Below, one piece after another: positions 1 to 36,195 of a DNA stretch of 64,000 bases (within the stretch, counting starts at the first letter, position 1; each line of letters starts with the position of its first letter). The position numbers and the translations under genes are program-made. A model generated the notes under the pieces. It saw only the letters and a program-made list of their open reading frames with translations. It was not told the DNA's origin and ran no database searches. Source of the stretch: Magnolia sinica (lineage: Eukaryota > Streptophyta > Magnoliopsida > Magnoliales > Magnoliaceae); the NCBI RefSeq assembly GCF_029962835.1, contig NC_080582.1, positions 16,624,032-16,688,031 of the forward strand, given 5' to 3'.

Positions 1-18
1 TCTCTCTCTCTCTCTCTC
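1..18. repeat. (TC)n microsatellite at the left edge
   Basis: A pure TC run is cut by the window edge. The same tract, longer, precedes copy B at 36,158-36,190, so the left limit of the duplication is at or beyond this microsatellite and cannot be seen here. Confidence 0.95.
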
Positions 19-414
19 ATATAATAGAAAATTACATCTAAATTAGGGAACATAACTGAAACCTGAAAAACCCAACCAATTCATGCAAAGCAGAAAGGCC
101 CCATAACAAAAATCATCTAACACCTCTGCGAGGAAAATAAAAGAAAAAATTAAATAAATTAAGTGTCCTTACTGCTGCAAGCATGATTTACAAAACAAAT
201 CCAGTACTTGTTTAACTTTCCGAAATTCATGCTAAAGAGTAACACATCCAATTTGTTCATGAAATTCATAATTCGAAGCCACTACGACTAAGTCACCTAA
301 GTCCTATAGAACACCCTCTTTCTACCACAGCATCGCACAAATAAAAGAGAATTACAATAGTTCAATAAGAGAATAATAACATAATAAACAGATCCTAGTT
401 GAAGCAGAAAAGAA
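19..414 (-). other. 3' flank of NLR1 (conserved NLR downstream block)
   Basis: This AT-rich DNA follows the NLR1 stop codon on the minus strand. A recognisable version of the same block (motifs such as 'aagccacta', 'ctaaatca' and 'aataaaagagaatta') also follows NLR2 (9,050-9,210), NLR3 (25,280-25,533), NLR4 (36,190-36,586) and NLR5 (44,090-44,272). It is therefore probably 3' UTR that was duplicated with the genes. No open frame of note. Confidence 0.6.
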
Positions 415-3258
415 TCACTTGGTTGACGGACACCATTCTTTGAAACGGATGTTGTGTGGCTTGACACTACCTTCCCATTTTATGCTTTCCCACCATTTCA
501 GCTCACCTTCAATCTTGACTTCTGCTGCAGAAGCATTTGTGTTATGGAGAGGAAGCTTCTCCAGCAGCGGGCATCCTCGAATCTTCAACTTCTTCAGCAT
601 CGGCAAGTGCCCACCGCAAATGCTTTTCAGTTTGCGTAGCTCCCAAAGTCGTAAATCGACTAGCTTTGGAAATGCATTTTGTCCCACCACGCTGTCTTCT
701 TCAAAGACCTTCTCCAGTCTACAACAGAATTTTATTTCTAGTAATTTGAGATTCTGTAACTGAATGCTCGAAGAGAAGAAGTTGATGAGCTTCGGGCAAC
801 AGTCCAAATATATATTCTTTAGGCATGCGAAGCTCCCACTTCCCAATTGCCACTGGCACACTGTTCTTAATTTGGCAAGATCGGACACCCTTAGATTTTC
901 TAAACAGACTGCTGCATCAACGTCTGCCACACCGATGTTTACATTTCGTCCGACAATCAGATACTCCAATTGATGGCATTTCTCAATCCAGCATTCTTTA
1001 AGGTTGTCCATCTTCATGCCGAGATCGGACAGTGCCTTAACAAACGCATTGCCATACAAATGAAAGAATTCTATCACCGAGATAACTCCTCTAATACCAT
1101 CCAGGGAATTCTCACCGCTGCAAACCTCCAACCATCTGTCATAGCTCAAAGACGGCTCAAATCGAGCATAAATACGGTGGTAGAGAAATCGGTTTCCTTT
1201 AAAACGACCATATCTATCCTTGCGCCCTCCCTTGCAGGTACAGACTACGAAATGGAATTTTAGAAAGCAGGATTTCCACAGCTTCGATCTTCGGTCCAAA
1301 GACTTGAAAACACTGGCATCACTGACTGAGATGCGACGTATGCTTCTGTCCTGTAGCTGTTCATGCAGTAAGTCCAATCCACATCGATCCCAATTCAAAT
1401 TTTCTGGAAGCTGATCTATCTTTCTCCAATCAACCGTCTTGAGATGCTCCATTCCCAACAGGTCCAGGCACCGCATGGTTGTCAGATTGAAAATTTCGTG
1501 CGGGAGCTCCTCCAATTTCGTGCTTGAAAGATCAAGTGCCTCAAGTTTTGAAAGTTTATCTAGGCTGACCAGTCTCACTAGAGATCGACAACCCTTGAGC
1601 GAGAGCCGGCTGAGGTTGCAGGCACCTGAGATGTTGAGACATCGGAGGCTTTGCATGTTGTGGAAGGATACCTCCACCATCTTCGTCAAGGGAGTTTGAT
1701 GGAGATCGAGGATCTCGAGCTTCTGCATATCCTTTAAGAATGAAGGAAGAGCCTCTAGCTTGCAGCAGCTTTGAAGCTTCAACAACCGTAATTCACATAG
1801 GCAGGACATGGACGAGGGCAGGGAAGTGATGCTTGTGAAAGAAATGTCAAGGACTCGGAGTTTGGTCATGTTCTGGAAAAAACCATCTGCGATTTCTTGC
1901 AAATGATCATTGTTTTTTAGCAACAATGTTGAGAGAAGAGGGCAATTTGGAGAGCGGAATGGGAGTGTTTCTACCTGATTATTGGATAATAAGATCCATT
2001 GGCATGATTCTTCCCTATCTAAGCTGTACTTCATTAGGAAAGTCTGAGAACCAATCACTTCCATCACCTGAGAATTCATATCCACATGATATTGTCCTCC
2101 CGAAGATACCTCCATTGTCAATTGCTTTTGTAGCCAATCCATAAATTCCCCTTCCATAGATTGAACTTTTGATAAGTCTCTCCAAAAATAAATTTCCCAC
2201 CTATCTAGAAAGGAGCTTAGGTAATTTGGGTTTGATGGCACCAGGGACAATAGCACCATGCACCTCTCCGCAAGCTCTTTGAGCAGTACATTCCCCATTC
2301 TCTTGAAAGCCGCTTCTTTATTCTCTTCCTCATTGAAGAATCCATCTAAAAAGCCCACCGACCTCCAATACTCTTCTATCAAGGAATCTGCATCGATGGA
2401 GCATCGGTTTCGACAGAGCAAGGAGATGTAAGAGAAGCATTTGAAGACCATGTCTCTGGTTATTGAGAAACCAATGCTGGCAGAAACATCCGCTGCCTCT
2501 TCCTGTAAAAAATCCCAGGCGTCTTCTTCAGACCACTCCCCCACCCTGATGTTTACTTGGGCTTTCATTTCGTTACAGACTTCTTGGGATTGAGTTGTGA
2601 TCACCACTTTGCTGTCGATGGTGAAAGCAGGGGCCATGACTGGAACTCCCATCTCTTCCAAGTTGATGCTTTCCCAAACATCTTCTAAGACGAGGAGGAA
2701 CCTCTGGCCGCTTAGCTTAGCCGAGATTTGTTTAGCAGCAGCGTAGAAGTCGATGGACTTTGTGATATCCAATGCCTCCTTCATTCCCATCTGTACCTCC
2801 ATTAAACGATTCCTTCTCCCCTTTTTATCCATCGCCTTTAAAATGCTTCTCTTCACAGACGATTCCGCAATGCCCTCTTTTTGCAAACGGTCATATTCTC
2901 CTTTGAGTCTTGCCTGCATATTCTCAGCAAGACTCTCGACCCCCGGTGCTCTTACTCGTATGATCACATCAAACAGACGGCTGGATTCTCTGGATTCATC
3001 CATCACCGCTGCAACCACCTGTCTCACGATCCGTGACTTCCCCACACCCTGCCATCCCCAAACTGAGAACACTGAAATATTGTCATCTCGCAAACAGTCC
3101 CATATCTGTTGCCTCATGCGTCGTGAGCAAGCACTCACAACCTCTCCTCCTTGTCTGAGCCGTCGATCATCAGCATCCCTGGAAGCTGCCGTCTCCTCCG
3201 CACGATCACTTTCTGCAAAATGGAATTCCTTGTTTGGTAAGGGTGGAAATGAGAGCAT
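415..3258 (-). CDS. NLR1: intact NB-LRR protein lacking CC and GLPL (947 aa)
   Basis: Single-exon NB-LRR immune-receptor-like protein, presumably cytosolic. Seen in the sequence: P-loop GWQGVGKS at residues 68-75, kinase-2 LLVLEDVW at 188-195, RNBS-B VITTQS at 219-224, RNBS-D-like CFSYISLLC at 274-282, then LRRs from about 425 to 620 and an irregular LRR tail ending in the LKSICGGHLPMLKKLKIRGC and WWESIKWE blocks typical of the RPS2/At4g27220-like CNL clade. It has no N-terminal coiled coil, TIR or RPW8 domain. RNBS-C (AWDFLQEEA, 247-255) runs almost directly into RNBS-D, so about 100 residues with GLPL are missing. The MHD position reads HVD. The start is the first in-frame ATG. The MAA start of its relatives is here ACG (codon 23, 3,190-3,192), so the 22-residue extension is uncertain. 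Closest relative is NLR4. Whether it works as a receptor, helper or decoy is unknown. Confidence 0.88.
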   Translation of the reverse strand: MLSFPPLPNKEFHFAESDRAEETAASRDADDRRLRQGGEVVSACSRRMRQQIWDCLRDDNISVFSVWGWQGVGKSRIVRQVVAAVMDESRESSRLFDVIIRVRAPGVESLAENMQARLKGEYDRLQKEGIAESSVKRSILKAMDKKGRRNRLMEVQMGMKEALDITKSIDFYAAAKQISAKLSGQRFLLVLEDVWESINLEEMGVPVMAPAFTIDSKVVITTQSQEVCNEMKAQVNIRVGEWSEEDAWDFLQEEAADVSASIGFSITRDMVFKCFSYISLLCRNRCSIDADSLIEEYWRSVGFLDGFFNEEENKEAAFKRMGNVLLKELAERCMVLLSLVPSNPNYLSSFLDRWEIYFWRDLSKVQSMEGEFMDWLQKQLTMEVSSGGQYHVDMNSQVMEVIGSQTFLMKYSLDREESCQWILLSNNQVETLPFRSPNCPLLSTLLLKNNDHLQEIADGFFQNMTKLRVLDISFTSITSLPSSMSCLCELRLLKLQSCCKLEALPSFLKDMQKLEILDLHQTPLTKMVEVSFHNMQSLRCLNISGACNLSRLSLKGCRSLVRLVSLDKLSKLEALDLSSTKLEELPHEIFNLTTMRCLDLLGMEHLKTVDWRKIDQLPENLNWDRCGLDLLHEQLQDRSIRRISVSDASVFKSLDRRSKLWKSCFLKFHFVVCTCKGGRKDRYGRFKGNRFLYHRIYARFEPSLSYDRWLEVCSGENSLDGIRGVISVIEFFHLYGNAFVKALSDLGMKMDNLKECWIEKCHQLEYLIVGRNVNIGVADVDAAVCLENLRVSDLAKLRTVCQWQLGSGSFACLKNIYLDCCPKLINFFSSSIQLQNLKLLEIKFCCRLEKVFEEDSVVGQNAFPKLVDLRLWELRKLKSICGGHLPMLKKLKIRGCPLLEKLPLHNTNASAAEVKIEGELKWWESIKWEGSVKPHNIRFKEWCPSTK

Positions 3259-3387
3259 GGGGTTGGCACGTTCTGTGCCCCATCAATTTAAAGCCGGCTT
3301 GGGCTCAAGTCATTTTACACCGATCCAGCACTTTGGGTTTTCTTCTCTCTAGCAACCAACAAAATTTATTGAAATGTATGAAAATTA

Positions 3388-3645
3388 CGTGGGCCCACAA
3401 CGATGTATTTCTTACATCCATTTTTTTAAGATCATTCTGAAAAACAGGGCAATCTCCAGTGCTGGGTTAGATGGGAATTGTAAGCCTACGGTTGGTGCTA
3501 GAAAGGTTTCAACGGTGGTATGGTCCACTTGAGCTTTGGATGTGCCTCATGTTTCGGCCCATCTCTGAAATTATCAATAAATATTGATGAACAGTGTGGA
3601 TTTAACACAAAAATAAAAAATTAAAAAATCATAGTGGGACTTGGA
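3388..3645. repeat. Palindromic P1 repeat, upstream of NLR1
   Basis: A degenerate copy of the dispersed palindromic repeat (called P1 here). It begins 'gtgggcccacaacgatgtat', contains the paired inner motif 'ggtccacttgagctttgg', and ends 'aatcatagtgggactt', an inverted version of its start. It lies about 130 bases upstream of the NLR1 reading frame. In copy B the middle is deleted (39,448-39,575). Confidence 0.75.
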
Positions 3646-3689
3646 GAAGTCAACATATGAATTATCTGCAACGGGTAAAAGAAGGGTGG

Positions 3690-4617
3690 TGGGAACTTGT
3701 TTTGAAACGTCAATTTTGAAATTATGTTAAGATGCCCGCCCACCAATATCAGATGTTTGGGAAATATGTGCGCACCTCCTATTAAGTGCAAACCATGCCA
3801 TGCAATCCATTTCTCTCACAAGGAAAATGCCCAAAAAACTCCACTTCCAAATAGGCCATAGTTACATTGAATCTGGACCGTTAGTCAACAAAATGTTGCA
3901 ATACCATCATTCATTGCATATTAAAATCCATTTACGTAATCATTTTTCAACTTTGCCATATTGTAGGGCCCAAACGTCTTCTTGGATAGGACTGTCAATG
4001 GGCCGGGTTTGAGGTTGGCATCTGTTCGTATTTTGAACTGTTAAAGCCTGACAGTTTGGCCCTATTCAAAATTTTGATTTTGCTGGAATAAGCCTGGCAC
4101 ATTGACAGCACTGTTGTTGGGCTTAAAACATAGTATTAAAGCTCATCTTAATAGGAACTACAATATTAAATGTTAGTCGGATATGGTTGTTTGAATACTG
4201 AGTTCAGCTGTTACGGAGGCCATATTTCTTCCCAATTAATGGTTGCATACCCAAACGTTCGGAGCCGTATTGATTCTACAAACAAGAAGCTGTGGTAGCT
4301 TCTCTGATTTACTGAAGCCGGTGAAATCACAAATTCCATGGATGACCGTCCATCATCACAACAATATTAGCAGGCAAGTTGTGTCCTCCTTGCACTGCTA
4401 AGGGCTTGATTGGATGAGAGGAATCCACAGCCAAGTAAAGCTGGGCCTAATGGATTTTTGGGTTTTGGCTTGGGCCCATTACTTTAAGACCATGCATGCT
4501 TCAAACTTGGGCCTAATGGTGCCTGGCCCGTTCCAGCCCACATGGCCACATGCAGCAAAAAGGCCCGCTTTGACGAGCAGGTACAAATCTCTCGTACCAT
4601 TTCTGTACTCACATGCG
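3690..4617. other. Copy A-specific segment of about 925 bases
   Basis: The sequence between 'ggtgggaacttg' and 'ttatcgagtacaatt' is absent from copy B, where the two flanks are almost joined (about 39,630). No target-site duplication or terminal repeat was found, so a deletion in B is as likely as an insertion in A. No gene recognised. It holds 'gggcct'-rich repeat-like text at 4,430-4,570. Confidence 0.75.
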
Positions 4618-4794
4618 TTATCGAGTACAATTTAAAAAGGATTGCGTGGTGACCCTAGAAGGATTTGTTTGGGCCACGTGTGTTGTTAGATATAGGTGGG
4701 CCGGTGAACCATGTGGAAGGACTTGATTGGGCCATGTGTGCTGTCAGAGATAGGTGGGCCATGATGTTTATGTGAAATTTACTCTGACTATATG

Positions 4795-6690
4795 ATTGGA
4801 AACAATGTATAAGGACAACACTCACCATCCAAAATGTTTCCCTTGGTGTGGCTCACCTGAATTGTGGATGGACTTTAATTTTGGGCCAAGGGGTCAATTT
4901 TTGGTGTGGCATCTAAGGGTTGAAGTGGATTTCATATAATCATCATCGTGGATGGTGGACAATGTAAAGATCAAGGTCATGAGGGTCTCTACCCACGGAG
5001 AGAGAGGATCCTGCTCAATTTTGGTCTCAAGTCCTAAAATGATCTCAAATAATGGATGGACGGGGTGAATTTCTCACAAACATCAAGGTGGGCCCCACCA
5101 AGAGTAACGTGAAATGATGTGGAGAGTGCGGATTGTCTGTGTTGAAGATAATAAAATTCAGTGCGGCCGCCTCTGATTGATCCACGTCATCACTGGATTT
5201 CTCTCTACCCATATATTGCGTGATACACAAGGTGACTTTTAACGTCCACAATGATTTATGTTATAGATCCAAACAGATTATCAATTTTTACAGATCATTC
5301 TAAAGAATAAGCCATAAAACAAGGCACATCCAAAGCTGAAGTAGACCACAACATAAAAAATAGTGGGGAATAAACCACCACCATTAAAACCTTCCTAGGG
5401 TTCATTGTTAGGTTTTTTCTTCCATCTAACTTCTTCGTAAGATAACATATACATGGATAAAGGGAAAAAAAAAATACTAACTTGATTAGAGTTTTTGGTG
5501 GCCCTAAGAAATTTTCAACAGTAAGCGTACAATTCTCACTATTTCTATAGTGTGGCCACTTGAGCTTTGATCTACATCATTTTCTGTCTACTCCCATAAA
5601 ATGGTACGGAAAATGAATAGACGGTTTGGATCTAATGCTTCCCATCTTCTTCTCTGCACTTGGAATGTGCTGCACCACGGGAGCTGATTAGGTGAGACCC
5701 GGGCTAAACCAAGACACTGCGGTAGTTACCATGGTGCTCACCTTGACTTGTGTTATTTTGTATGCACTCCTTTCATCCATTTTTCCAGATAATTCTAAGG
5801 TATTATAGAAACAAGAAAGTAGATCCAATTATCAGGTGGACCATATCATAATAAACAGCGGTGATTAATGATTAATAAGCCACAAAAGTTTTATGTCAAG
5901 CATATATTTGATTTACCTCTTCATCCAGGCTTATGTGAACTCATCAACAGATTGATGGAAAATAAAACAAACGGAAACATTGAGTTGAGCCCTAAGAAGT
6001 TTTTAATGGTAGCGTCTCAATTATCATTGTTTCCTAGAATATAATCCACTGGGTAATTGGATCTTCTTAAGTGTTGGCATCAAGATCTAAAATGATCCAA
6101 AAAACGGATGGACAGAGTAGATAGAGAATACACAAATCAAGGTGGGCTCCGTGGTAAGGCTGCACCATCGTGGGTGAAGCCCGGCCTCACCTAATCATCT
6201 CGCGTGCACCACGTAGTAAGCCATCGAATTTCTTGGAGTGTGAAATTTATGCAGGCCATGCTATGATATATTTCTTAGATCCACACTGTCCGTCCATTTT
6301 TTTCAGATCATTCTAAAATATGAATCCAAAAACATTGAAAATTCAAAGCTAAAGTGGACCACCCCACTGAAGACAGTAAGAATTCATGCTACTGTTTAAA
6401 ACTTATTGGAGCCACAGAGCCTTCTAATCAAGTTGATATTTGTATTTTAACTTCATGCAGATATGTGTGATCTTATGAACATGCCAGATGGAAAATAAGC
6501 CTCACAATGGGCCTTAGGAAAGTTTCAACGGTAATTTGTTTCACCTCCACTACTTTGTGTGGGGTGATTTACTTCAGCTTTGGACGTACCTCATTTTAAG
6601 ATTATGCTCTATATTTATCTGAAAATATTGATGGACAGTATAGATCTAGCACAAAAATCATGATGGGACCCAGAAAAAGTTCCATACACT
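4795..6690. repeat. Cluster of four P1 palindromic repeats
   Basis: Four degenerate units in a row: about 4,795-5,100, 5,243-5,650, 5,745-6,160 and 6,240-6,690. Each has the P1 grammar: an outer arm with 'tagatccaa.c', inner arms 'aagt(g/a)gacca' and its complement 'tggtccacttgagctttg', and a closing arm 'atgatgggaccc' or 'caaggtgggc'. Unit boundaries are approximate. No gene seen. The copy B counterpart is 39,830-41,705. Confidence 0.7.
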
Positions 6691-6840
6691 TCAAGAGTTG
6701 TGTTGTGTAATGAGATAGAAATCAGTCGTATCTCGTTAGCTGAGTGACTGAGTCATCAGAAATATCGTGGAGGAATGAGAAGCAACAGCTACCACTGGAA
6801 ATTTTTGTGCCTTCAACACAGACGATCCACACTCTGCAAC

Positions 6841-7050
6841 TTATCCCACTTCCGACACCTTCCAAAAATGGTTTACAGTGAAAAGATAGAAAAACCAATA
6901 GATATAGATACCTGGTATTTGCCTCCTCTTATGTCCTGCGTTCACAAACTCTCCTCTTCTTCTAAGCTGTCCATCATCTACCGTTACCTCTGCAGGATAT
7001 ATTTCTGCAAAATTCGATTCCTTGTTTTGTAAGATTGGAAATGAGTGCAT
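6841..7050 (-). pseudogene. Relic of an NLR 5' end
   Basis: The minus-strand frame begins MHSFPILQNKESNFAEIYPA, matching the NLR1 start MLSFPPLPNKEFHFAESDRA. It goes on through RRRGEFVNAGHKRRQI, matching the RQGGEVVSACSRRMRQQI stretch just before the P-loop, and then loses similarity. The NB and LRR parts are gone. The conserved TTTTGCAG (here 'aattttgcagaaa') is also kept. The relic lies between NLR2 and NLR1 on the same strand and recurs at 41,868-42,089, so it predates the segmental duplication. It was probably a sixth NLR unit lost by deletion. Confidence 0.75.
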
Positions 7051-7179
7051 GGGCTAAACATGGAATAGTCATTTTAGACTGACCCATCGAGACCAAACTT
7101 CATATGTAGCCGTTATGTCGCCAATATATATTTCTAGACTTGAAGGGCCTGTTTGAATATCACCTACACCTAACAAGTA

Positions 7180-7318
7180 ACCCTTTTTTTTTTTTTTTTG
7201 TTTATATATATATCTATAAAGCTTTTAGCAATAAAAAATTTATTTTTGGAAGTTAGTTTGATTAGCACTATTAGATTTTCTTTTTCTTTTTCTTTTCTTT
7301 TTTTTTTTTTTTTTTGGA
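7180..7318. repeat. Poly-T and TA low-complexity tract
   Basis: T runs at about 7,183-7,199 and 7,299-7,315 surround a short TA repeat at 7,204-7,212. In copy B the TA part has grown to 42,239-42,277. Confidence 0.9.
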
Positions 7319-7377
7319 AGTTTTTCTACTTTTCTACTCCCCTTCTCCCGGCACAGATTTGGTGGATCCCTAACTGT

Positions 7378-7700
7378 GGAGCCCACCATGGTGATGCGTG
7401 AACCTTACATCCACGGTGTCCATCCAATTTCACACATCACTCTAGAGCAAGATCCAAAAAATGAAGCATATCCAAATCTCTAGTGGACCACACCACACGA
7501 AATAGAGGTGATTGATCATTAAAAACTTCTTCTCGACCACGAAAGTTTTGGATCAAGCTGATATTTTTGTGGTCCCTTCGTTCATGTCTTTGCAACCTCA
7601 CCAAGAGGTTAGGTGGCAAATAAACATTCACGCATCCCCCAAGAAATTCATGGTGGGCCACATAGTAATGGATCCAAGGACCTATTCTCTTGAATTGGAC
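7378..7700. repeat. P1 palindromic repeat, partial
   Basis: Starts 'gtggagcccaccatggtgat', continues with 'ccatccaattt', 'tagtggaccacaccac' and 'ttttggatcaagctgatatt', which are P1 internal motifs, then grades into a minisatellite. Copy B counterpart about 42,460-42,700. Confidence 0.7.
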
Positions 7701-7953
7701 ACTCCACATAAAAGGTCGCCACGTATGATGGACAACCCATATAAAAAATGAGTCCCACATGATGGATGATCCTCATCAAAGATGGGCTTCATATGATGGA
7801 TAATTAACATTGATGGTGGGCTCACATGATAGATGACTTATATCAAATTGGGCTCCACATAATGGGCATCCCACATCAAAGGTCAGCCTCTAATGATTAA
7901 TGGTTTATATCCAAGGTAGGGTCCGCATGATGGACGACCCACATCAAAGGTAG
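7640..7953. repeat. Minisatellite built on 'cacatgatggatgacccaca', left part
   Basis: Degenerate tandem units of about 35-40 bases with the theme 'ggtgggccc(a)catgatggatga.ccacatcaaa'. The array is split by the solo LTR at 7,959-8,609 and continues at 8,615-8,910. Confidence 0.75.
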
Positions 7954-7958
7954 GGCCC

Positions 7959-8609
7959 TGACGCAGGGATGAACATGATGAGGTCGATCCCCAAAGCCTC
8001 TCTGGACTCCTCACAAAGACTTCTCGAATCCACGACGAAAAAAAAAGAAAAAGAAAATAGAAATAATACTCTAGAAAATTTGTAAATTGATTAATGATTG
8101 AATAAATGAATTTACATCCTTTAAATAGGGATACTAAGCCATGGAAGAAGTTTCGGAATTAAACTATAGCTAAAACTCCTAGAAATCGCGAGTTACTATA
8201 AATAGTAAACTTACTATTTATAGACAGTCGTAATTCCTACTAGTGCGCATGGTTTTCAGCCAAAAATAGTAAATAGTAAGTGTTCTATTTGGCTTCAGCA
8301 TGTTGTTCTTCTAATTATTCTAAGCACTTTTAATGTTGGGCGCAACTCGCAGATCCCAACGGATGAAGAGTTATAATCCAACTAAAACTTATTATAAAAA
8401 ATGAAATTAAAATAGGAATTCGACTGACGATGTGATGGTATTTCACAAATTCGGCTTGGGGAAAATCATATATGGTACATCTGGTAGCTCATTTCGATTT
8501 GCGAGATACATCTGTTTTAAGTTCTGACGGTTTGGATCACCTCCTTCCCTGATCGGGCCTTTTCTTGTCCATCTTGGCCATGAAACTATCCACTACCCGC
8601 TCTGCATCA
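7959..8609. mobile_element. Solo LTR (family LTR-s), copy A
   Basis: A fossil LTR, 651 bases, running from TGACGCAG to CTGCATCA (short inverted ends, TG...CA). It is flanked on both sides by the 5-base target-site duplication GGCCC (7,954-7,958 and 8,610-8,614) and sits inside a minisatellite. No internal region remains, so it is a solo LTR left by LTR-LTR recombination. Copy B carries the same LTR at the same site (42,997-43,643). A more diverged relative lies at about 30,142. The superfamily cannot be told from the LTR alone. Confidence 0.85.
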
Positions 8610-8614
8610 GGCCC

Positions 8615-8910
8615 ACACTATAAGGTGGGATCCACATGATGGATAATAACATTGATTATAAGCCCCACATGATGGATGACCCATATCAAGGTGGGCCACA
8701 TGAGGACAATTCACATCGAAGATCTGCCCCTAGCTAGTGATGAATGACCAACGTTTAAGGCAAGTCCCACATAATGGACAGCTCATTTTGAAGTTGGGCC
8801 TGCATGATGAACAGTCCACATTAAGGTGGCCACGCATGATGGACGACCCACATCCAAGGTGGGCCGCACATAATGGGTAACCCATATCAAAGGGGGAGCG
8901 GATTAGGTGA
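8615..8910. repeat. Minisatellite, right part
   Basis: Continuation of the 'catgatgga.gacccacatcaa' array after the solo LTR. Units vary from about 30 to 40 bases. Confidence 0.75.
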
Positions 8911-9210
8911 GACCCCATATCCACTGAGGTGGGTGGGACTCCTATGGGTTCGACTGTCATCCACCGTCCGTCCATATTGAAAGCTCATTTTAGGGCATGA
9001 TAAAAAAAATGATGCAGTTCCAAATCCAAGATGATCTACATCCAATAATTTCTTTCTAAAATTCATAATTCGAAGCCACTAAGACTAAATCAAAGTTCAA
9101 TGGAACGGCCTCTTCTTTCTAGCACATAGTAACCCAAATAAAAGAGAATTATAGTAGTTCAAGAAGAGAAGAATGACACAACAAATAGGGACAGTTTAAG
9201 TAGAGAAGAA
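8911..9210 (-). other. 3' flank of NLR2
   Basis: The left part keeps P1-like text ('gattaggtgagacccc', 'catccaccgtccgtcc'). From about 9,050 it matches the downstream block shared by the NLR genes. No gene. Confidence 0.6.
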
Positions 9211-11928
9211 TCACTTACTTGATAGACAACATTCTTTGAAACGGATGTAGCTTGGCTTGATACAGCCCTCCCATTTTATAGTTTCCCACCATTTCAGCTC
9301 ACCTTGGATATCAACTTCTGTTGCAGAAGCATTTGTGTTATCGAGAGGAAGCTTCTCCAGCAGCGGGCATCCTCGAATCTTCAACTTCTTCATCATCGGC
9401 AAGTGCCCACCGCAAATGCTTTTCAGTTTGCGTAGCTCCCAAAGACATATATCAACTAGCTATGGAAATGCATTTTGTCCCACCTCACTGTCTTCTTCAA
9501 AGACCTTCTCCAGTCTACAACAGAATTTTATTTCAACTAATTCAAGATTCTGTAACCGAATGCTCGAAGAGAAGAAATTGATTAGCTTCGGACAACATTC
9601 CAAATATATATGCTTTAGGCATGCGAAGCCCCCTCTTCCCAACTTCCCCCGGCGCACTGTTATTAATTTGGCAAGATCGGACACCCTTAGATTTTCTAAG
9701 CAAACTGCTGCATCAATGTCTGCCATTCTTCCAACGAACAGAAGCTCCAATTGATGGCATTTCTCAATCCAGCATTCTTTAAGGTTGTCCATCTCCATGC
9801 CAAGATTGGACAGTGCCATAATGGACGCGTTGCCATACAAATGAAAGAATTTTGCCATAGAGAGAACCCCTCTAACACCATCTAGGGAATTATTACCACC
9901 GCAAACCTCCAGTCCTCTTTCATAACTCAAAGACTGTTCAGATTGAGTATAAATATGCTGGTAGAGAAATTGGTTTCTTTTAAAACGACCATATCTATCC
10001 TTGCGCCCTCCCTTGCAGGGACATACCAAGAAGTGGAATTCTGGAAAGCAGGATTTCCACAGTTTCGAGCTACGGTCCAAAGATGAAAAAACACTGGCAT
10101 CACTGAACGAGATATGACGTCTGCATCTGTCTTGGAGTTGTTCATGGACCAAGCCCAAGCCACATCGATCCCAATTCAATTTTTCTTGGAGTTGTCCAGT
10201 CAACCGTCTTGAGATGCTCCATTGCCAACAGGTCTAGGCACTGCATGCTAGTCAGACTGAAAATTTGGTGCGGAAGAACTTCCAATTTCGTGCCTGAAAG
10301 ATCAAGTGCCTCAAGTTTTGAAAGTTTATCTAGGTTGGCCAGTGTCATTAGAGAGCGGCAACCCTGGAGCGAGAGTCGACGAAGGTTGCAGGCACCTGAG
10401 ATGTCGAGGCGTCGGAGGCTTTGCATGTTATAGAAGGATGCCTCCAGCATCTTTGTCAGGGCAGTTTGATGGAGATCAAGGATCTCAAGCTTCCGCATAT
10501 ACTTTAAGAACGTAGGAAGACCCTCTAGCTTGTGGCAGCTTTGGAGCTTCAACAACTGTAATTCACAAAGGCAGGATATGGAGGATGGCAGGGAAGTGAT
10601 GCTTGTAGAAGAAAGGTCAAGGACTCGGAGTCTGGTCATGTTCTTGAAAAAACTGTCTGGGATTTCTTGCAAGCGATCATTATCATTAAGCAATAACGTC
10701 GAGAGAAGAGGGCAGTTTGGAGAGCTGAATTGGAATGTTTGTACCTGATTGTGGGATAATGAGATCCTTTGGCATGCTTCTTCTGCGTCCAAGTTGTTTT
10801 TCACTAAGAACGTTCGAGAACCAATAACTTTCCTCACATGAGAATTCATATCCATATGATATTGTCCTCCTGAAGATTCCTCCATTGTAAATTGCTCTTG
10901 CAGCCAGTTCATAAATTCTACTTCCCGGGGATGATTGTCCCACTGACGTAAATATTGATTTTTAGTCTCCTCTTGAAAGAGAGAGAGAGGTAATTTGGGT
11001 TTGATGACGTCAGGGACAATAGAACCATGCATCTCTTGGCGAACTCTTTGAGCAGTACATTCCCCAGTCTCTTGAAAGCCACTTCTTTATTCTCCTCCTC
11101 ATTGAAGAATCCATCTAAAAAGCCCTCCGACCTCCAATACTCTTCTATCAAGGAATCTCGGTCGATGGAGGTTCCGTTCTGACACAAAAAGGAAACGTAA
11201 GAAAAGCATTTAAAGACCATGTCTCTGTTTGAAAAACCAATGCTGGCAGCAACATCAGCCATCTCTTCCAGTAAAAAATCCTAGGCATCTTCTTCAGACG
11301 GCTCCTCCACCTTGATCTTTAATTGAGCTCCCATTTCAGAACAGACATCCTCGGATTGAGTGGTGATGACGACTTTGCTGCCACTTGTAACCGAAACTCC
11401 AATATCTTTCAAGTCAAAGCTTTCCCAAACATCTTCAAAGATGAGGAGGAACCTTTGGCCACTTAACTTATCATTGATACTCTTAGCAGTTGCGGAGAAT
11501 TGTATGGACTCTGGGATCTCCAATGCCTTCTGGATTCCCATCTGCATCTCCATCAACCGATTACTTCTCCCCTTTGCAGCCAACCACCCTAAAACATCTT
11601 CCCCATAAACGGAACTCAAATAAAAGCGATCCTTCATTTCTCCTTTGATTCTATACGTCATCTTCTCTCCAAGACTCTCGATCCCTGGCGCTCTTACCGG
11701 TATGATCACATCAAACAGACGGCTAGATTCTCCGGATTCCTCCATTGCGGCGACTACCTGTCTCACGATCCGTGACTTCCCCACTCCCTGCCATCCCCAA
11801 ACTAAGAACACTGAAATATTGTCATCTCTCAAGCAATCCCATATCCGTTGCCTCATGTGTTGTGACAAAACGCTCACAACCTCTCCTCCTCCTTTAAACC
11901 ATCGATCATCATCCCTAAAAGCTGCCAT
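9211..11928 (-). pseudogene. NLR2: broken NB-LRR gene, partner of NLR5
   Basis: Collinear with NLR5 over its whole length, from MAAFRDDDRW (start at 11,928) to the same C-terminus. It has the P-loop GWQGVGKS, LLIFEDVW, VITTQS and CFSYVSFLC, and lacks GLPL as the others do. Four lesions are visible against NLR5. TGG to TAG at 11,281-11,283 ends the frame within RNBS-C. Two extra bases in a GA run near 10,975-10,990 shift the frame. About 11 bases are missing near 10,190. An in-frame TAG lies at 9,460-9,462 near the C-terminus. A product would be at most 215 residues, NB domain only. It is a pseudogene unless the short NB fragment is used. Confidence 0.88.
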
Positions 11929-12069
11929 TGCCTACGCCGGATCTCTCCTGCAAAATTCGAACTCATCATCTCATGATTAAGACTTTTAATGCTCAAGTCA
12001 ATTTTCAAAGCTGTTTAATGCTCAAGTCATTTTAGCTGGACCCAATCAACATTTCTTCTTGTTTTTTTA

Positions 12070-12480
12070 TCAATGGATCTGCTTCATTTTGAGATAGTCC
12101 CTAAAATGATCTCGATAAATGGATGGACGGCGTGGATACAGAATACAAACATCACCGTGGACCCGACAGTAATCCGATCTGTGGCACGAGCTTATAAAAC
12201 ACGCCTATTTTCTCCATCCCGAATAGATTGCACACTACATGCACGGTTTCAACGTGCGGAACTCTGTGGGCCCCACCATGATTTGTGTGTTAGATCCACT
12301 CCATCCATCAATTTTTCCAGCACTATTGAGTAGTAGGGATTAAATGAACTACCATTGAAACCTTCTACTGCACAACAATGAGATTTATTTGCCATCTAAC
12401 CTGTGTATGAGGTCACACGTAACTGGACGAAGGAAAAATACAAATATCATGGTGGAGCCCACGTAAATTTCACGCGTCAG
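12070..12480. repeat. P1 palindromic repeats, two partial units
   Basis: About 12,070-12,170 is a right half ('tgatctcgataaatggatggacggcgtggata'-type text, quoted here only in outline). About 12,258-12,475 is a shorter unit bounded by 'ctgtgggccccaccatgatt' and 'atcatggtggagcccac'. They lie directly upstream of NLR2. Copy B: 47,135-47,545. Confidence 0.7.
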
Positions 12481-12615
12481 CGACGTATGGTGCAGCGTAT
12501 CGGGAGAAGAAAACCAGAATGTTGAATGCCCATCAATCAGTTGGCCCGCATTAGTGGCAGCCATGGTGGTACTATCCACCAGATGGATGGTTTGGGTCAA
12601 ACTGAATCAAGCAAG

Positions 12616-13161
12616 GGAAAAAGGTATTATGCGCTCGAACTGATGGGAACGTCCCATGAGGTCGAGCTGTGTGGGCCCCACCGTGATGCTTTTCGAACAT
12701 CTACCCCATTAGTCAGATGCACCATTTCATTGTGGGCCTAGTTCTCAAAAATCAAGTCAATCTGTGACTTGTGGGCCACACAACGTACAGAAGTTGAGAG
12801 GGGCCATGCACCATTAAAACATTCATAATCATTTTTTGGACTCACCGAGATGTGGTTTGCAAATCCAGCGCATCCATTATGTGTGTCCCACTTAGATGAG
12901 GGTTCAGACCAAGTTTTAGATGCATGCAAATTTCAGGTGGGTCCCACCAAGTGCTATTATATGTTTTTAGCATGTCTTCACATGATTTTAGATGGTATGG
13001 CCCACCTGAGTTCCATATATGGCTGATTTTTAGCATATCCCATAATTTAAAGGGGACCCATCAAATGCACGGTGTTGATGATCGACATGCATCACAGTGG
13101 GGCCCACACAGCTGGACCTCATGGGAGGTTATCATGAGGTCGAGCGCATAGTAACTTTTCC
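12616..13161. mobile_element. P2 palindromic element, unit 1
   Basis: A second palindromic family with long terminal inverted repeats of about 60-70 bases. Reading inward from both ends gives GGGAAAA, then a 'TAT' segment, 'GCTCGA', 'ATGGGAAC', 'CCCATGAGGTCGAGCT', then 'GTGGGCCCCACC.TGATG'. Unit 1 spans about 546 bases. It is a MITE-like, non-coding DNA element. No target-site duplication was certain. Copy B keeps it up to 48,182. Confidence 0.7.
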
Positions 13162-13169
13162 CATGAGGT

Positions 13170-13714
13170 TGCCTATATATATACGGATGGTCGATCTTAT
13201 GGGAACTCCCCATGAGGTTGAGTTGTGGGCCCCACCATGATGTATGTCGAACATCTACCCCATCAGTCAGATGCACCATTCCAGATGGACCTGTGCTTAA
13301 AAATAAAGTCAATCCATGACTTTTGTGGCCACACCACGTCCAAAAGTGGAAATGGGTTATCTTCCTATTAAAACATTCATAATCATTTATTGAGCCTACC
13401 AAGTTGTGGTTAACAGATCCAGTACATCCATTATGTGTTCCACTTGTACAAGGGGTCACACTAAGTTTCAGATGCATCCAAATTTTAGGTGGGCTCCACC
13501 AAGTGCTTATATATGGTTTAGGCATGTCTCTACATTATTTTAGATGGTATGGCTCACCTGACTTACTTATATGACTGATTTTTGAGATATACCATCATTC
13601 AAAGGGGACCCATCAAATGCATGGTGTTGACGTTGGACACACATAATGGTGGGGCCCACATAGCTCGACCTCATGGGAAGTTCCCATGAGCTCGACTGTA
13701 TAGAACCTTTTCCC
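13170..13714. mobile_element. P2 palindromic element, unit 2, in a TA run
   Basis: Same family and orientation as unit 1. The left arm is clear from about 13,198 ('atgggaactccccatgaggt') and the right arm ends 'tagaaccttttccc' at 13,714. The left side has 'tatatata' at 13,174-13,182 and the right side abuts an AT run, which suggests insertion into a TA microsatellite. In copy B the left boundary is replaced by a GC-rich block (48,183-48,257). Confidence 0.65.
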
Positions 13715-13733
13715 ATATATATATATATATATA
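13713..13733. repeat. Short (AT)n microsatellite
   Basis: About ten AT units. The copy B counterpart (48,776-48,844) is more than three times longer. Confidence 0.9.
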
Positions 13734-14310
13734 AATTGAGGTGAGCCACATCATAGATAACAAATGGTTGGCCACAGCATAGGTTGTATGCGAGGTGCGC
13801 CATGGAATGTAGAATCAATCCAAACCGTTCATCATGTGGAACCCAGCAGGATGACGGGTAACCCCATTTAAAATAGTTTGGATTATCCAAACATGTGATT
13901 GACGGCCATTTGTTAATTAAAATTACAGTCCAACCTATTTTGGCTTCAATCATACAATTGACGGCCACCGATAACTGGTCAAGGAAAGAATAAATTACGT
14001 ACTGAACTAAAATTAGACCAACTCACTTTTGTTAGCATTGTGACTTGTATTGTTAGGGAATTCCATAAAATAATACTTGGATAATTTGGTATTTAAAAAG
14101 GTACCAGGATGTAAATATCTATTAATGTGGTACTATTTTATAGAAGCAAGAGCTTTCTGGTCCACGCAGATTGCATGGTACCAGGGAGGTATCCATGCCC
14201 TCCATCCGTTTCTACCTATCATATTAGTTAAGAAATATGTTTGACAAGCTTACAAAGACCCGCCAAGATTGGAAGTTTTTTATATTCTAGATATACTCGG
14301 CAAGGCTATC
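13734..14310. other. Intergenic DNA, nothing recognised
   Basis: No gene, repeat end or structure was recognised. The segment is nearly identical in copy B (48,850-49,431). Confidence 0.5.
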
Positions 14311-14571
14311 TCACATGATTTTGCCAAAATGAGAGATCTCCGTAGAGATGATCAGAGCTTCCATGATGACTATGAAGGTTCGAGAGGCTGATTCCTCCCA
14401 TGGAAGGAAATCAAAGGCCGTGATGAAGAATCCAATTTCAATTAAGATATGACCTATATTGGAACATTTAAGGACCTCTGTAGCCAAGCTATCATGGAAA
14501 TCTGAAACTGGTTTGACATTGTAATAATCAAGAATCTTGAACCAGCAAGGAAACCCAATAAGGGTTGCCAC
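14311..14571 (-). other. Unrecognised 86-residue frame conserved in both copies
   Basis: The minus-strand frame starts MATLIGFPCWFKILDYYN and ends EISHFGKIM. It looks helical and moderately hydrophobic. It is open in copy B too (49,432-49,692) with few replacements. It lies upstream of NLR2/NLR5 on the same strand. NLR5 has an in-frame stop just before its ATG, so this is not simply its first exon. I do not recognise the family. It may be an exon fragment of a host gene, part of the nearby Ty3 relic, or chance. Confidence 0.25.
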
Positions 14572-14639
14572 TTTGCGGAGCTATATACGGAGCATGCAGT
14601 GAAGAGCTCGGGGCCTAAGCTAAATACAGTTTCTCTACA

Positions 14640-15009
14640 CAGCACAATGCTACTTATCTTAATTCTAGATTTTATTTATTTATTTATTTTTTAAATTCCT
14701 CCACTTTCGTCCAGCTCCAGTGCCAAATGTATAGAGTTTAAGATAGCTTACATTGTTGCTATCTAGTGCCATCGGTATAGTATGCATAAGAGTAGCATAA
14801 ATATCGATGACCTACTGTTGTCGGATCCCCGATCAACCAAGTCCTTACTTGGAAGTTTACACCCTGGTCACATCCTGCCAACCACTCGCCTCAATTGTTT
14901 GTCTATACAGCCGATTGTGAGTATTTGTCTTCTATTTATTTCTCTGCTTATTTTGTTTCCTTGTTAGAGTACTAAGTTCCAACAAAATTATTACCCAACA
15001 GAAGTGACA
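14640..15009. other. Possible 5' remnant of the Ty3 relic
   Basis: Text such as 'gtcggatccccgatcaacc' and 'tcacatcctgccaacc' resembles LTR or leader sequence, but no end repeats were found. No gene recognised. Confidence 0.3.
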
Positions 15010-17510
15010 TTTACATAGTACATAAACCTCCCTACAAACTCAATCCAGACTTAACTTGAGATGTAGGAAAGGTTGCAAATGAAATTCCACCGAACTAAGC
15101 CTGAAGTCACCATGGCTAATTTATCCAAACTTCACCAATTGCCTGGAGAATTGGCCAAACAATTCATCGTCCAACTCAAGGGCACTAAGAATTGGTGCCC
15201 TATGATTCTTCCCGAGGCTGAGTTCGCTAGACTCGTCTTCAAAAGCATGGACTTTGAGCTTCACAAGAAGTTTGAAAGCAAGCACTTTGGTGACCTATTC
15301 AAGTTGTCAACTAGGGTCACCTATTACAAACAAAATCTCCCTGAGGAGAGTCATCAGATGAACTAATCACATGGCATGTTTTATCGTGACTCTAACTATG
15401 AACGGAACATCATGGAGGTAATATAGGCAAACAATTGTACAAATTTCTGACTTTAAATCATTTTGAAGTTTAGACCTTCACAAGTGTGAACCCTCTGAAG
15501 GCTATCCTCAAGTCCTTGAGGCAATACTCTTTTGATAGTTCTAAGGCTAAAGAAATCTTTGACTTGTTGTTAGAGGTCAGATTTATCAAACTCTCTGACT
15601 ACCAGAAGAATCCATTGGCTAAGGAACAAAAAGGAGAGTACTGGAAGTGGAAAAGTTTCAAAACATGTTCTACTAAGAGTTGTGTAATTTTTAGTAATAT
15701 CATCCCGGAGAACATTGATAAAGGCCTCCTAAAGTTTCTCGAAAAGGATGCCATGGGGGTCGACCGAGATCCTTTCCCAAAGACCGTTAGCGTCAATGTC
15801 ATCACGGATGAAATTAAGATGATCGGTCAAATTACCACTAATAAATCCAAGGTGGCGACTCCTTAAACACTAACAAAGGAGCCATCTAAACCTAAATGAC
15901 AAGCAACTATTGCTTCCTTCAAATCTTTGTGGCCAAACCAACAAAGGAAGCAAGCTTCAATGGGAGATTAATGATAATGCCCCTCCCGATGAACTCAAGA
16001 AAAATTTGGTGATGTATGAATGCTGCTCGAGGCACATCGAGAAGGGTACAAAACGTTCATCACTCAACGAACGATATAATTGGTTGTCATGATTGTCCAC
16101 CCAACTAAGGACAAGACAATTACCAGGGCGTCAACAACCAAACCAACGGTAGCACTACTCGCTTCTTACCCACAAGCGTAGAAAGACGAGTTGACATTTC
16201 ACGTTGCCTATAATCATAAGAGTACGAAACCCTAACCAAATCAAGTTTGGGTGCCCAAGGATTCATGAACTGCCACATTAAGCTCTAAGGAGACACTTTG
16301 TAGGCTAGCCTGATCACCCACAACTTTGCTGGCCACCCGTAAGGCCACGAATGGTTAAGCCTGGTGAAGCATTCACCAACCAGTGGACTATTGCAATCCA
16401 TCAAAAAATTTCACAAGATCCTCAAGGACTGGCCATAACTTAGAGACACGGGTTACAAAGGTGGACGGCTATGGCTAGGGCATTCGCCATTGCTGATCGG
16501 GTTATATGCAATAGGATGCAATTGATTGCAGAGAGGTTCGGACCATTCCATGAACGTCCAACACCTTGGGAGCCAATGCCCTCCCGCAAAGAGATCCACG
16601 TGGAGGAGGATTTTAAAATATTGTCATCTCTTCTTAGGAAATCTGTTTAGCTTATCAATCTTTCCACGGATCTCCCAGCTTGAGAATTTTCTAAAAGAAA
16701 TTGGAGATCAGATTCAGACATCTAAATCAAGGGAAAGTAGCCGCAAAACCACATTAACATTAGGACTATACTGCCCATCACCTTTAATTATAACCTAGCA
16801 TTTATTTTTCCAATGAACTTCCAAGCATCGTCGGATTAGCCTAATCAGGTGGTTAAGGACATCAAAGAGGTAAGAGAGACCTCAGCGCAAGTAGATATTT
16901 GATCCTCCATAGCTGACCATGGCCATGGAGCCAGACACACTGCTGTCATTGAGGACAATGAAGAACCAAAGAAGGTCATCTCTACGAAACCTTCACATTC
17001 GATAACCAAACACTTGAAACCTTTCTATGTGACCACACATATGGATGGTTGCCTAGTTTCGTGAGTTATGGTCAACAACAGTGTAGCCATAAATATCATT
17101 CTAATGTCAATGGTCCAAAGGCTAAAAAAAACACCGCAGGACTTAATGCCAACCGAGGTTACTATATCAAGTTTCGTAGGAGGGGTCACAAACACCAAAT
17201 GGTGCTCTTTGTGGAACTACTAGTAGGAAGTAAAAAGGTCGTGATGGTTTTCTTCGTGATTTAGCCAACAAGCAGCTACCACACACTCCTAGGGAGAGAT
17301 TTGGTCCATTCCATTTAGTATATCCCGGCATCCCTACATTAGTTCCTGATTCTTTGATATGGAAAGAAGGTTGAAATTGTTTATGCAGCCAATCGACCAT
17401 TCGTAGTCATATCAAATATCGGCGAAGCTAATTTTTATATAGGGTAGATCAATCCATTGTGCTGTATCGGCCAAAACAAACATGGCTGGCTGACAGGAGT
17501 CACTACTACG
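15010..17510 (+). mobile_element. Ty3/gypsy gag-protease relic, copy A
   Basis: Fossil of a Ty3/gypsy LTR element, probably Tat-like. Recognisable parts on the plus strand: gag ('LPGELAKQFIVQLKG', 'EAEFARLVFKSMDFELHKKF', about 15,073-15,366), a later gag part ('YWKWKSFKTCSTKSCVIF' and 'FPKTVSVNVITDE', about 15,486-15,866), and an aspartic-protease region ('LKPFYVTTHMDG', 'LMPTEVTISSF' and 'LLGRD'-like text, about 16,990-17,500). No reverse transcriptase, integrase or clear LTRs are seen. It is old and badly broken, with on the order of ten or more breaks. It is shared with copy B (50,131-52,631), so it predates the segmental duplication. Confidence 0.75.
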
Positions 17511-17754
17511 ATATATCCCTCCCAAGATGTGGACACGATTATCTCAATGGACTCTTCTCAAGAATGGGATATGCTCATGCCCTATATGATATGTTAAAAT
17601 AGATGGACAACATGGATAGAACATATAAATCACGGTAGGCCCGTAGAGCCTCTGACAACCATTCATCTCTAGCCAGAGCTAGTACCCAATCCACATCTAA
17701 AGGCACCAAAGCGAAGCCTTTAACCTCCATGCAGATTGCATAGGCTACTCTATA

Positions 17755-18590
17755 GGCCCATTATGATGTTATTTGCATGAGCATTTTAGAGCATGAATCC
17801 AAAAACGGGTAGATCCAAATCTACTTTGGACCACACTATACATTATGACGACAAATAAACATTATGGTGGGCATTATAGTGGGCCTTAGGAATTTTTAAT
17901 TGCGGGTGTTCAATCAGCACCTACTTCTATGAAGAGCTGGGCATTGAGTCGGGTCGGACCGAGTTAAGGCTAACCTGACTCGATCCGGTTTTAAAATAGT
18001 CCAAAGCCGAACTTGACCCGACTTGGTACCAAGTCCATCATGGCCGACCCAATCTGAGTTCGGGTCTAGCTTGGACTAATCCGAACCAAGTCCGACCCAA
18101 TGACAAGTATCGAGTCAGGTCAAGTTGGCACCAAGTCAGGTCGGGTGCAACGGGTATCCACATACTAAAATCACAACTCGAAACCTAGATTCACTTGCCA
18201 AAATTGCAACTTCTCTATCAACTCAAAACCTAGTTTTTTTTTTTTTTTTTTTTTTAATTTAATATACATGTACTAGTCGAGTTTTGAATCAAGTCGAATC
18301 AGTACCGAGTTGGATTTCAGGTCCAGTTGAGTTATCAAACTTGATTGGGTTTGAGTTCGGATTGGACGAAGTCAACTTGATTCAAATTAACTCACCTACT
18401 TAGTTTGAATCGATTCATATCTGAATGAGTTAGACAAGTTGAGTCATCCCATGCTCAGCTCTACTTCTATGGTATGGTCCAGCCGAGATTTGGATCTGTT
18501 TAATTTGTGGGTTCATGCCCTAAAAAGAGCCCAGAAAACAGATGGATGGCATGGATACAGAGTTCATACGTCAAGGTGGACCCACGGTAA
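17755..18590. repeat. P1 palindromic repeat interrupted by a hAT-like MITE
   Basis: The left half (17,755-17,931) opens with 'aggcccattatgatgtta'. The right half (18,464-18,590) closes with 'gtcaaggtggacccacgg'. The two halves join at CTTCTATG, the target duplicated by the MITE at 17,932-18,463. Confidence 0.75.
17932..18463. mobile_element. hAT-like MITE (family H2), copy A
   Basis: A 532-base element with imperfect 13-base inverted ends (left AAGAGCTGGGCAT, right ATGCTCAGCTCTA) and an exact 8-base target-site duplication CTTCTATG (17,924-17,931 and 18,464-18,471), as expected for the hAT superfamily. The interior is a degenerate 'gagtcgggtcgg' and 'ccgaacttgacccgac' repeat with no coding capacity. 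It is nested in a P1 repeat. The same insertion is in copy B (53,057-53,595). Confidence 0.85.
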
Positions 18591-20441: not shown

Positions 20442-20449
20442 AGTGGGTG

Positions 20450-20995: not shown

Positions 20996-21003
20996 AGTGG
21001 GTG

Positions 21004-28550: not shown

Positions 28551-28771
28551 CGCCTCTGGATGATCACTTTCTGCAAAATTGGAATTCCTTGTTTCGTAAG
28601 GGTGGAATTGATAGCATGGGCTAGGCATGGCCTGCAAGCTTGGCCCTATCAATTTTCAAGCAGGTTTATAATTAGGCTCGAGTCATGTTAGACCAATCCA
28701 TCCCGACCTGGCTTCATCCGGATTTTCTCTCTCGCTAATGGATTGCCTATTACACAATCCAATTTTTACCG

Positions 28772-36157: not shown

Positions 36158-36190
<33 letters not shown>
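36158..36190. repeat. (CT)n microsatellite at the start of copy B
   Basis: A pure CT run of about 33 bases at the left limit of visible similarity with copy A. Confidence 0.95.

Positions 36191-36195
<5 letters not shown>

What the first reader, a model, noticed from the sequence alone, without database searches (positions are those of the whole stretch)
2824..2912. Hypervariable patch 1 in the nucleotide-binding domain
NLR1 and NLR4 are nearly identical around this point, yet between MQAR and KAMD NLR1 has 23 residues and NLR4 17 with almost no identity. The same place differs strongly in the NLR5/NLR2 pair (46,637-46,732 against 11,590-11,665) and in NLR3. Length changes stay in frame. Two independent pairs varying at the same spot suggest diversifying selection or patchy gene conversion. 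The place is odd because NLR variation is normally in the LRRs, which here are nearly the same.
Basis: seen in the sequence. Interest (0 to 1): 0.8.

Follow-up and report, generated by a model that had tools for sequence, protein, structure and literature searches.

The report
Fast-changing inserts in NLR switch domain
In a plant immune-receptor gene cluster, two short stretches inside the receptor's molecular-switch domain have changed far faster than the rest of the gene, in the clearest gene pair almost only by changes that alter the protein, which suggests that selection favours novelty at an unusual place in the receptor.

Summary
NLR1/NLR4 and NLR2/NLR5 are copies from one 23-kb block duplication (mean mismatch 0.039). 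Four of its five most divergent 60-column stretches are two homologous patches in both gene pairs: the reported one and another in the winged-helix region. In NLR5/NLR2 patch 1 aligns without gaps, with 24 amino-acid-changing against 1 silent change, and silent divergence close to the rest of the gene. Fitted omega: 12.5 (patch 1), 9.3 (patch 2), 0.83 (rest). Hotspot, compensated frameshift and a silent-divergent donor are disfavoured for this pair, so diversifying selection is the best reading. NLR1/NLR4 is unclear: gaps, raised silent divergence, a mosaic LRR. 'LRRs nearly the same' holds only for NLR5/NLR2. Compared with a wheat G10 NLR, patch 1 lies in an extra segment of 40-44 residues, patch 2 probably in one of 46-47, and about 68 residues (HD1 with GLPL) seem missing; the second insert and the deletion rest on weaker alignment. 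Limits: 3 of 5 copies are broken, including one of each pair; no outside relatives; poor structure models; the blocks may be two haplotypes.

The parts
415..3258 (-). NLR1, intact 947-aa open frame: NB-ARC plus RPS2-like LRR, no N-terminal signalling domain recognised
2839..2907 (-). Patch 1 in NLR1 (residues 118-140), between the P-loop and Walker B, inside an extra segment of about 44 residues
2152..2217 (-). Patch 2 in NLR1, winged-helix region before the MHD-like place
9214..11970 (-). NLR2, copy with in-frame stop (11283) and frame changes
11581..11649 (-). Patch 1 in NLR2
10919..10986 (-). Patch 2 in NLR2 (2-nt length difference to NLR5 in a CT repeat at its edge)
25537..28607 (-). NLR3, older, decayed copy (stops at 28481, 28019, 27863; frame changes)
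28185..28265 (-). Patch 1 in NLR3 (81 nt)
36590..39390 (-). NLR4, block-duplicate of NLR1, with in-frame stop (39210) and a frame change near 38149
38992..39042 (-). Patch 1 in NLR4 (51 nt)
38308..38370 (-). Patch 2 in NLR4
44273..46999 (-). NLR5, intact 908-aa open frame, block-duplicate of NLR2
46652..46720 (-). Patch 1 in NLR5
45995..46057 (-). Patch 2 in NLR5
1..23116 (+). First copy of the block duplication (its left end may lie outside the window)
36173..58274 (+). Second copy of the block duplication

Best explanation
The patch is one of two short segments of the NB-ARC region under strong diversifying (positive) selection in a small tandem family of RPS2/G10-like plant NLR genes. Patch 1 lies in an extra stretch of 40-44 residues in the nucleotide-binding domain that a wheat G10 NLR lacks, perhaps at the tip of a helical hairpin. 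Patch 2 lies in the winged-helix region before the MHD-like place, probably in a second extra stretch of 46-47 residues. Shown from sequence: after the block duplication amino-acid-changing substitutions piled up in these segments of NLR5/NLR2 about seven to twelve times faster than silent ones (by count and by codon model), and in-frame gaps arose in NLR1/NLR4. Inferred: the two inserts are exposed surfaces that touch a fast-changing partner, and new variants were favoured. The partner could be a pathogen effector that is recognised, an effector that inhibits the switch and must be evaded, or a sibling NLR whose cross-pairing must be avoided. In NLR1/NLR4 exchange with unsampled paralogues probably added to the change.
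For: Four of the five most divergent 60-column windows of the duplication are patches 1 and 2 in both pairs. In the two non-coding stretches tested (3300-9100 and 12000-23116) no window reaches 16/60 outside one spot, 13089-13177. NLR5/NLR2 patch 1: dN 0.40, dS 0.054; patch 2: dN 0.31, dS 0.074; rest of gene: dN 0.031, dS 0.047. N against S within patches: p=0.021 (patch 1), p=0.006 (both); N in patch 1 against S of the rest: p=4e-11. Codon model: omega 12.5, 9.3 and 0.83; hotspot with omega 1 rejected at p=0.0018, hotspot with the omega of the rest at p=0.0021; a shared silent clock is not rejected (p=0.87). Allowing gaps does not improve the NLR5/NLR2 patch 1 alignment, so no compensated frameshift. 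No copy shifts frame between the patch 1 bounds, 5 of 5. In the patch 1 window, pair distances (0.28 and 0.32) come close to non-pair distances (0.33-0.53), against 0.00-0.07 within pairs in the other NB-ARC windows. Inserts and missing HD1.
Against: One member of each pair (NLR4, NLR2) is broken as assembled, so selection must have acted before the break or on the intact partner. Patch 1 has only about 19 silent sites, so dS is imprecise: one or no silent change still has probability 0.08 with a donor at pS 0.20 and 0.20 at pS 0.15. NLR1/NLR4 shows no N excess over S (p=0.75) and has raised silent divergence. Pair members remain the closest in the patch, if barely. The patches were picked because they diverge. 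No relatives outside the window, no expression data, poor structure models (pLDDT 42.8 and 48.7). The place of the second insert is weakly supported: the segment with patch 2 and the MHD-like place matches the 9h2l winged helix at z=0.4 (NLR1) and 2.6 (NLR5). Surface exposure and partner contact are inferred only.
Confidence: 0.6

Rival explanations
1. Patchy gene conversion or unequal recombination with unsampled, more distant paralogues brought in diverged patches, without selection for change at the patch.
For: NLR1/NLR4 patch 1 has raised silent divergence (p=0.0008). The LRR of the same pair looks mosaic: NLR4 is NLR5/NLR2-like at 886-985 (0.04 against 0.11 to NLR1), and NLR1 has 14 differences private to it in 1050-1199.
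Against: NLR5/NLR2 patches have silent divergence like the rest of the gene (2 of 33 against 25 of 537 sites, p=0.66). A donor as far away as the other gene group (pS about 0.27) would give so few silent changes in both patches with probability 0.003; a closer donor (pS 0.15) with probability 0.11, so it is not excluded. No donor inside the window: the longest match outside NLR copies is 15 bp at E=0.004. Chance conversion does not explain the same two spots in two genes.
Confidence: 0.17
2. The two blocks are the two haplotypes of one locus laid in tandem by the assembler, so the pairs are alleles and the patches are allelic polymorphism, perhaps kept by balancing selection.
For: About 23 kb collinear at mean mismatch 0.039, breaking sharply at 23116/58274.
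Against: An older, decayed relative of the same genes (NLR3) lies between the blocks, as in a tandem array. This rival changes the genealogy, not the N-over-S signal.
Confidence: 0.15
3. Relaxed constraint: the inserts are dispensable loops in a decaying gene family and drift freely.
For: Three of five copies are broken; omega outside the patches is 0.83, near neutral.
Against: Neutral drift cannot exceed the silent rate; patch dN (0.40 and 0.31) is about nine and seven times the silent divergence of the rest of the gene (0.047).
Confidence: 0.05
4. Local mutation hotspot, sequencing error or compensated frameshift.
For: A short CT repeat lies at the edge of patch 2 in NLR2.
Against: Hotspot model rejected at p=0.0018; no gain from gapped alignment in patch 1 of NLR5/NLR2; no frame shift between the patch 1 bounds in 5 of 5 copies.
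Confidence: 0.03

Closest known systems
Highly variable NLRs (hvNLRs) of Arabidopsis (PMC8226289; passages and section 11 read)
   Same: Fast-changing residues cluster in parts of an NLR. The paper reports a minority of highly variable residues in NB-ARC (0 to 10 per gene; 10 in RPP8 and AT5G48620) and proposes target binding or compensation.
   Different: In 30 of 30 genes of that paper most such residues are in the LRR. Here NLR5/NLR2 has 52 of 83 differing residues before window position 45700 (NB-ARC side), 28 of them in 55 patch codons, and 31 of 470 after it (LRR). hvNLR is defined on alleles within a species, which I could not test.
CC-G10 NLRs (RPS2/RPS5 type; wheat octameric G10 resistosome, PDB 9h2l; class described in passages of PMC12856790)
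   Same: Best sequence match and best fold match among solved structures; LRR_RPS2 Pfam domain.
   Different: No N-terminal CC found, HD1/ARC1 with GLPL seems missing, extra segments of 40-44 and 46-47 residues, MNS or VNS at the MHD-like place.
NRC helper NLRs inhibited by nematode effector SS15 (PMC10156107, PMC11981194; passages read)
   Same: Shows that an NB-ARC surface can be a pathogen contact and that a host NB-ARC can evolve out of inhibition; a precedent for an arms race at the switch domain.
   Different: SS15 binds the NB-HD1 hinge, and HD1 seems missing here; in the NRC3 clade a single residue decides sensitivity, against whole patches here.
Positively selected NBS-LRR sites (banana RGA08, PMC3017797; Arabidopsis survey as cited in PMC4898808; passages read)
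   Same: [quoted passage not shown] CC-NB as well as LRR in RGA08, with sequence exchange in a tandem cluster.
   Different: In both the majority of sites are in LRRs (RGA08: 21 of 40).

Membership tests
Plant NLR (NB-ARC plus LRR) | NB-ARC domain | tested here: met
   Pfam PF00931 E=4e-22 (NLR1, profile 4-174 of 248) and 5e-21 (NLR5, 3-171 of 248)
Plant NLR (NB-ARC plus LRR) | LRR domain | tested here: met
   LRR_8 and LRR_RPS2 above cutoff in both intact proteins
Plant NLR (NB-ARC plus LRR) | P-loop and Walker B | tested here: met
   GWQGVGKS and EDVW present in NLR1 and NLR5; motif names recalled
Plant NLR (NB-ARC plus LRR) | HD1/ARC1 subdomain with GLPL motif | tested here: not met
   No GLP string in NLR1 or NLR5; KCFSY...LLS matches the WHD of 9h2l (z=5.2 and 7.0) and not its HD1 (z=-0.6 and -0.9); 23 and 22 residues where 9h2l has 91. 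A collinear alignment without the deletion is also possible and is what phmmer and MAFFT chose
Plant NLR (NB-ARC plus LRR) | MHD motif | tested here: not met
   HVDMNS/HVDVNS at the aligned place; the alignment there is weak
CC-G10 NLR | N-terminal CC-G10 domain | tested here: inconclusive
   Open frames start at the NB-ARC; 3 of the 12 minus-strand ORFs listed upstream of NLR5, and ORF 13061-13525 upstream of NLR2, gave no Pfam hit; spliced or very diverged exons not excluded, NLR1 upstream not scanned
CC-G10 NLR | RPS2-like LRR and closest relation to a G10 NLR | tested here: met
   PF23247 above cutoff; 9h2l is best
hvNLR | High residue entropy across alleles of one species | not testable with these tools
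   No genome is held for this window
hvNLR | Variable residues mostly in the LRR | tested here: inconclusive
   On pair differences, not alleles: NLR5/NLR2 patches 28 of 55, other NB side 24 of 369, LRR 31 of 470; NLR1/NLR4 patches 23 of 43, other NB side 28 of 358, LRR 65 of 518, so by count the LRR holds most in NLR1/NLR4 but not in NLR5/NLR2

The most novel reading that the evidence does not exclude
A lineage of plant NLRs has rebuilt its switch domain (HD1 lost, two inserts gained) and moved the fast-evolving contact surface from the LRR to these NB-ARC inserts, so that recognition or evasion of a pathogen protein happens on the switch itself.
Probability: 0.22. Interest if true: 0.8.

Novelty: new variant of a known kind. 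Interest (0 to 1): 0.6.

Why it matters
NLR specificity is usually placed in the LRR or in integrated domains. A family whose strongest diversifying selection lies on two inserts of the NB-ARC switch would show another place where plant receptors meet fast-changing partners, and would give a precise target for swaps and structure work. It also suggests that NB-ARC alignments from which insertions are removed could miss such sites.

Tried and rejected
Own-genome search: no genome is held, so no donors or further paralogues could be sought there; the other sequence collections (prokaryote, phage, plasmid, viral, metagenome) were not searched because a plant gene was not expected in them. Structure prediction of NLR1 residues 1-440 (pLDDT 42.8) and of residues 40-236 (pLDDT 48.7) was too poor for mapping. 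Both put the middle of patch 1 between two helices (NLR1 about 107-127 and 132-162), at block-mean pLDDT of about 42-65; I use this only as a hint. Compensated frameshift: rejected for NLR5/NLR2 patch 1. Donor for the patches in the window: none beyond homologous NLR positions and short matches of up to 15 bp outside NLR copies. Patch as an intron: judged unlikely from lengths of 51-81 nt; minimal plant intron size is recalled. That the region after the NBD is simply collinear with HD1 (as phmmer and MAFFT align it) was dropped in favour of a deletion; it stays possible. One listing, the three-frame reading for NLR3, used wrong bounds and is not used. Literature: 10 searches (two found none). 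No paper describing paired hypervariable NB-ARC inserts showed up in these listings, which is weak evidence because the library holds open-licence papers only and only seven papers were opened in part.

Full report
What is there. The window is plant-like DNA (NLR genes, a plant transposon domain) with five related NLR genes on the minus strand. NLR1 (415-3258, 947 aa) and NLR5 (44273-46999, 908 aa) are open throughout. NLR2, NLR3 and NLR4 have in-frame stops and frame changes as assembled. Bases 1-23116 and 36173-58274 are two copies of one block, so NLR1/NLR4 and NLR2/NLR5 are pairs made by the same duplication; NLR3 is an older copy between them.

The observation. The aligned duplication has 21,846 ungapped columns with a mean mismatch of 0.039; the non-coding stretches measured are at 0.017-0.034. 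The five most divergent non-overlapping 60-column windows are one non-coding spot (13134-13195, 36/60) and then patch 2 of NLR1/NLR4 (25/60), patch 1 of NLR1/NLR4 (24/60), patch 1 of NLR2/NLR5 (20/60) and patch 2 of NLR2/NLR5 (16/60). In 12000-23116 only windows starting within 13089-13177 reach 16/60 (73 of 11,012 overlapping windows); the maximum in 3300-9100 is 12/60. The non-coding spot is an unrelated-looking replacement next to tandem repeats of about 530 bp. Two further LRR windows of NLR1/NLR4 reach 14/60.

Selection or exchange. NLR5/NLR2 is the clean case, because patch 1 aligns over 32 codons without gaps: 24 nonsynonymous changes at 76.8 sites against 1 synonymous at 19.2 sites. 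Rest of the gene: 59.5 of 1986 and 24.5 of 537. Patch silent divergence is not raised (patches together 2 of 33 against 25 of 537, p=0.66), while amino-acid change in patch 1 exceeds the gene's silent change (p=4e-11) and the patch's own (p=0.021; both patches p=0.006). A pairwise GY94 fit with a shared silent clock gives omega 12.5, 9.3 and 0.83 for patch 1, patch 2 and rest. The model with free rates but omega 1 in the patches is worse than the full model (p=0.0018); the shared clock is not (p=0.87). One search uses 894 of the 908 codons of NLR5; gapped and stop codons and small margins at the patches were left out. Patch 2 of NLR2 carries a 2-nt length difference, and its codons were read in the NLR5 frame. 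The patches were chosen because they diverge, so the p-values are not those of a blind test; the match of both positions across the two pairs is the partial safeguard.

NLR1/NLR4 is mixed. An in-frame codon alignment gives 14.7 of 57 nonsynonymous and 5.3 of 15 synonymous changes plus six gapped codons in patch 1, against 22 of 733.5 and 8 of 199.5 in the flanks. Silent change is therefore raised as well (p=0.0008), and N does not exceed S (p=0.75). Patch 1 of NLR1 still shares a 27-bp stretch at 89% with NLR3, so at least part of it is probably old sequence that NLR4 lost or changed. Elsewhere in this pair the LRR looks like a conversion mosaic: NLR4 is close to NLR5 and NLR2 at 886-985 (0.04, against 0.11 to NLR1), and NLR1 has 14 differences private to it in 1050-1199. 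The LRR of NLR1/NLR4 has dS 0.18.

Distances in the patch. In the 100-column window over patch 1 the pairs differ by 0.28 (NLR5-NLR2) and 0.32 (NLR1-NLR4) and the eight non-pairs by 0.33-0.53; in the other NB-ARC windows the pairs differ by 0.00-0.07. Pair members are still the closest, but the trace of the duplication is nearly gone in the patch.

Where the patches lie. The best solved relative is 9h2l, an octameric wheat G10 resistosome. From the P-loop lysine to the start of the helix before Walker B, NLR1 has 80 residues (74 to 154), NLR5 76 (51 to 127) and 9h2l 36 (191 to 227), an excess of 44 and 40; patch 1 lies in that excess. After the NBD, the segment KCFSY...LLS matches the winged-helix domain of 9h2l (z=5.2 for NLR1, 7.0 for NLR5) and not its HD1 (z=-0.6 and -0.9). 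On that reading 23 and 22 residues stand where 9h2l has 91, so about 68 residues with the GLPL motif seem lost, and 61 and 60 residues stand where 9h2l has 14 before the MHD-like place, an excess of 47 and 46 that holds patch 2. This second part is weaker: the segment from patch 2 to the MHD-like place matches the 9h2l winged helix at z=0.4 (NLR1) and 2.6 (NLR5) only, and phmmer and MAFFT prefer a collinear alignment without the deletion. The GLP string is absent from both intact proteins, and the Pfam NB-ARC match stops at profile position 174 and 171 of 248. Other departures: TTQS, where TTR is frequent in magnoliid CNLs (PMC8724549, section 16), and MNS or VNS at the MHD-like place. No coiled-coil domain was found in the two intact proteins or in the few upstream ORFs scanned.

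How it likely works. Shown: two homologous NB-ARC segments changed at excess speed in two gene pairs, with strong amino-acid bias in one. Inferred: the segments are exposed contact surfaces. Precedents: a minority of highly variable residues in NB-ARC of Arabidopsis hvNLRs (PMC8226289, passages and section 11), positively selected sites outside LRRs in other families (PMC3017797 and PMC4898808, passages), and a nematode effector that inhibits helper NLRs by binding the NB-ARC, with later host escape (PMC10156107 and PMC11981194, passages). Which partner drives change here is not known. Recognition, evasion of an inhibitor and insulation between sibling receptors all remain possible; I favour the first two together over the third without direct evidence.

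Limits. Few silent sites, broken partners, no outside relatives, no expression data, poor structure models, possible allelic rather than tandem origin.

Noticed in passing
1-23116 and 36173-58274: One block duplication of about 23 kb carrying two NLR genes; could also be two haplotypes placed in tandem.
   Followed up: partly
2152-2217, 10919-10986, 38308-38370, 45995-46057: Second hypervariable patch, in the winged-helix region, as divergent as the first in NLR1/NLR4 and somewhat less in NLR5/NLR2.
   Followed up: yes
NLR1 residues 250-273, NLR5 residues 218-240: HD1/ARC1 with GLPL seems deleted (about 68 residues), and the MHD and TTR places are changed, so the switch may not work in the usual way.
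   Followed up: partly
886-1199 and about 37050-37360: LRR of NLR1/NLR4 looks mosaic: NLR4 partly NLR5/NLR2-like, NLR1 partly private.
   Followed up: partly
12635-13716 and 47709-48794: Tandem repeats of about 530 bp upstream of NLR2 and NLR5, with a short unrelated replacement between the block copies at 13134-13195.
   Followed up: partly
60574-63939: Transposon remains: a Transposase_32 domain and a retroviral aspartyl protease frame.
   Followed up: no
48674-48871: Long TA repeat, read as YIYI frames.
   Followed up: no
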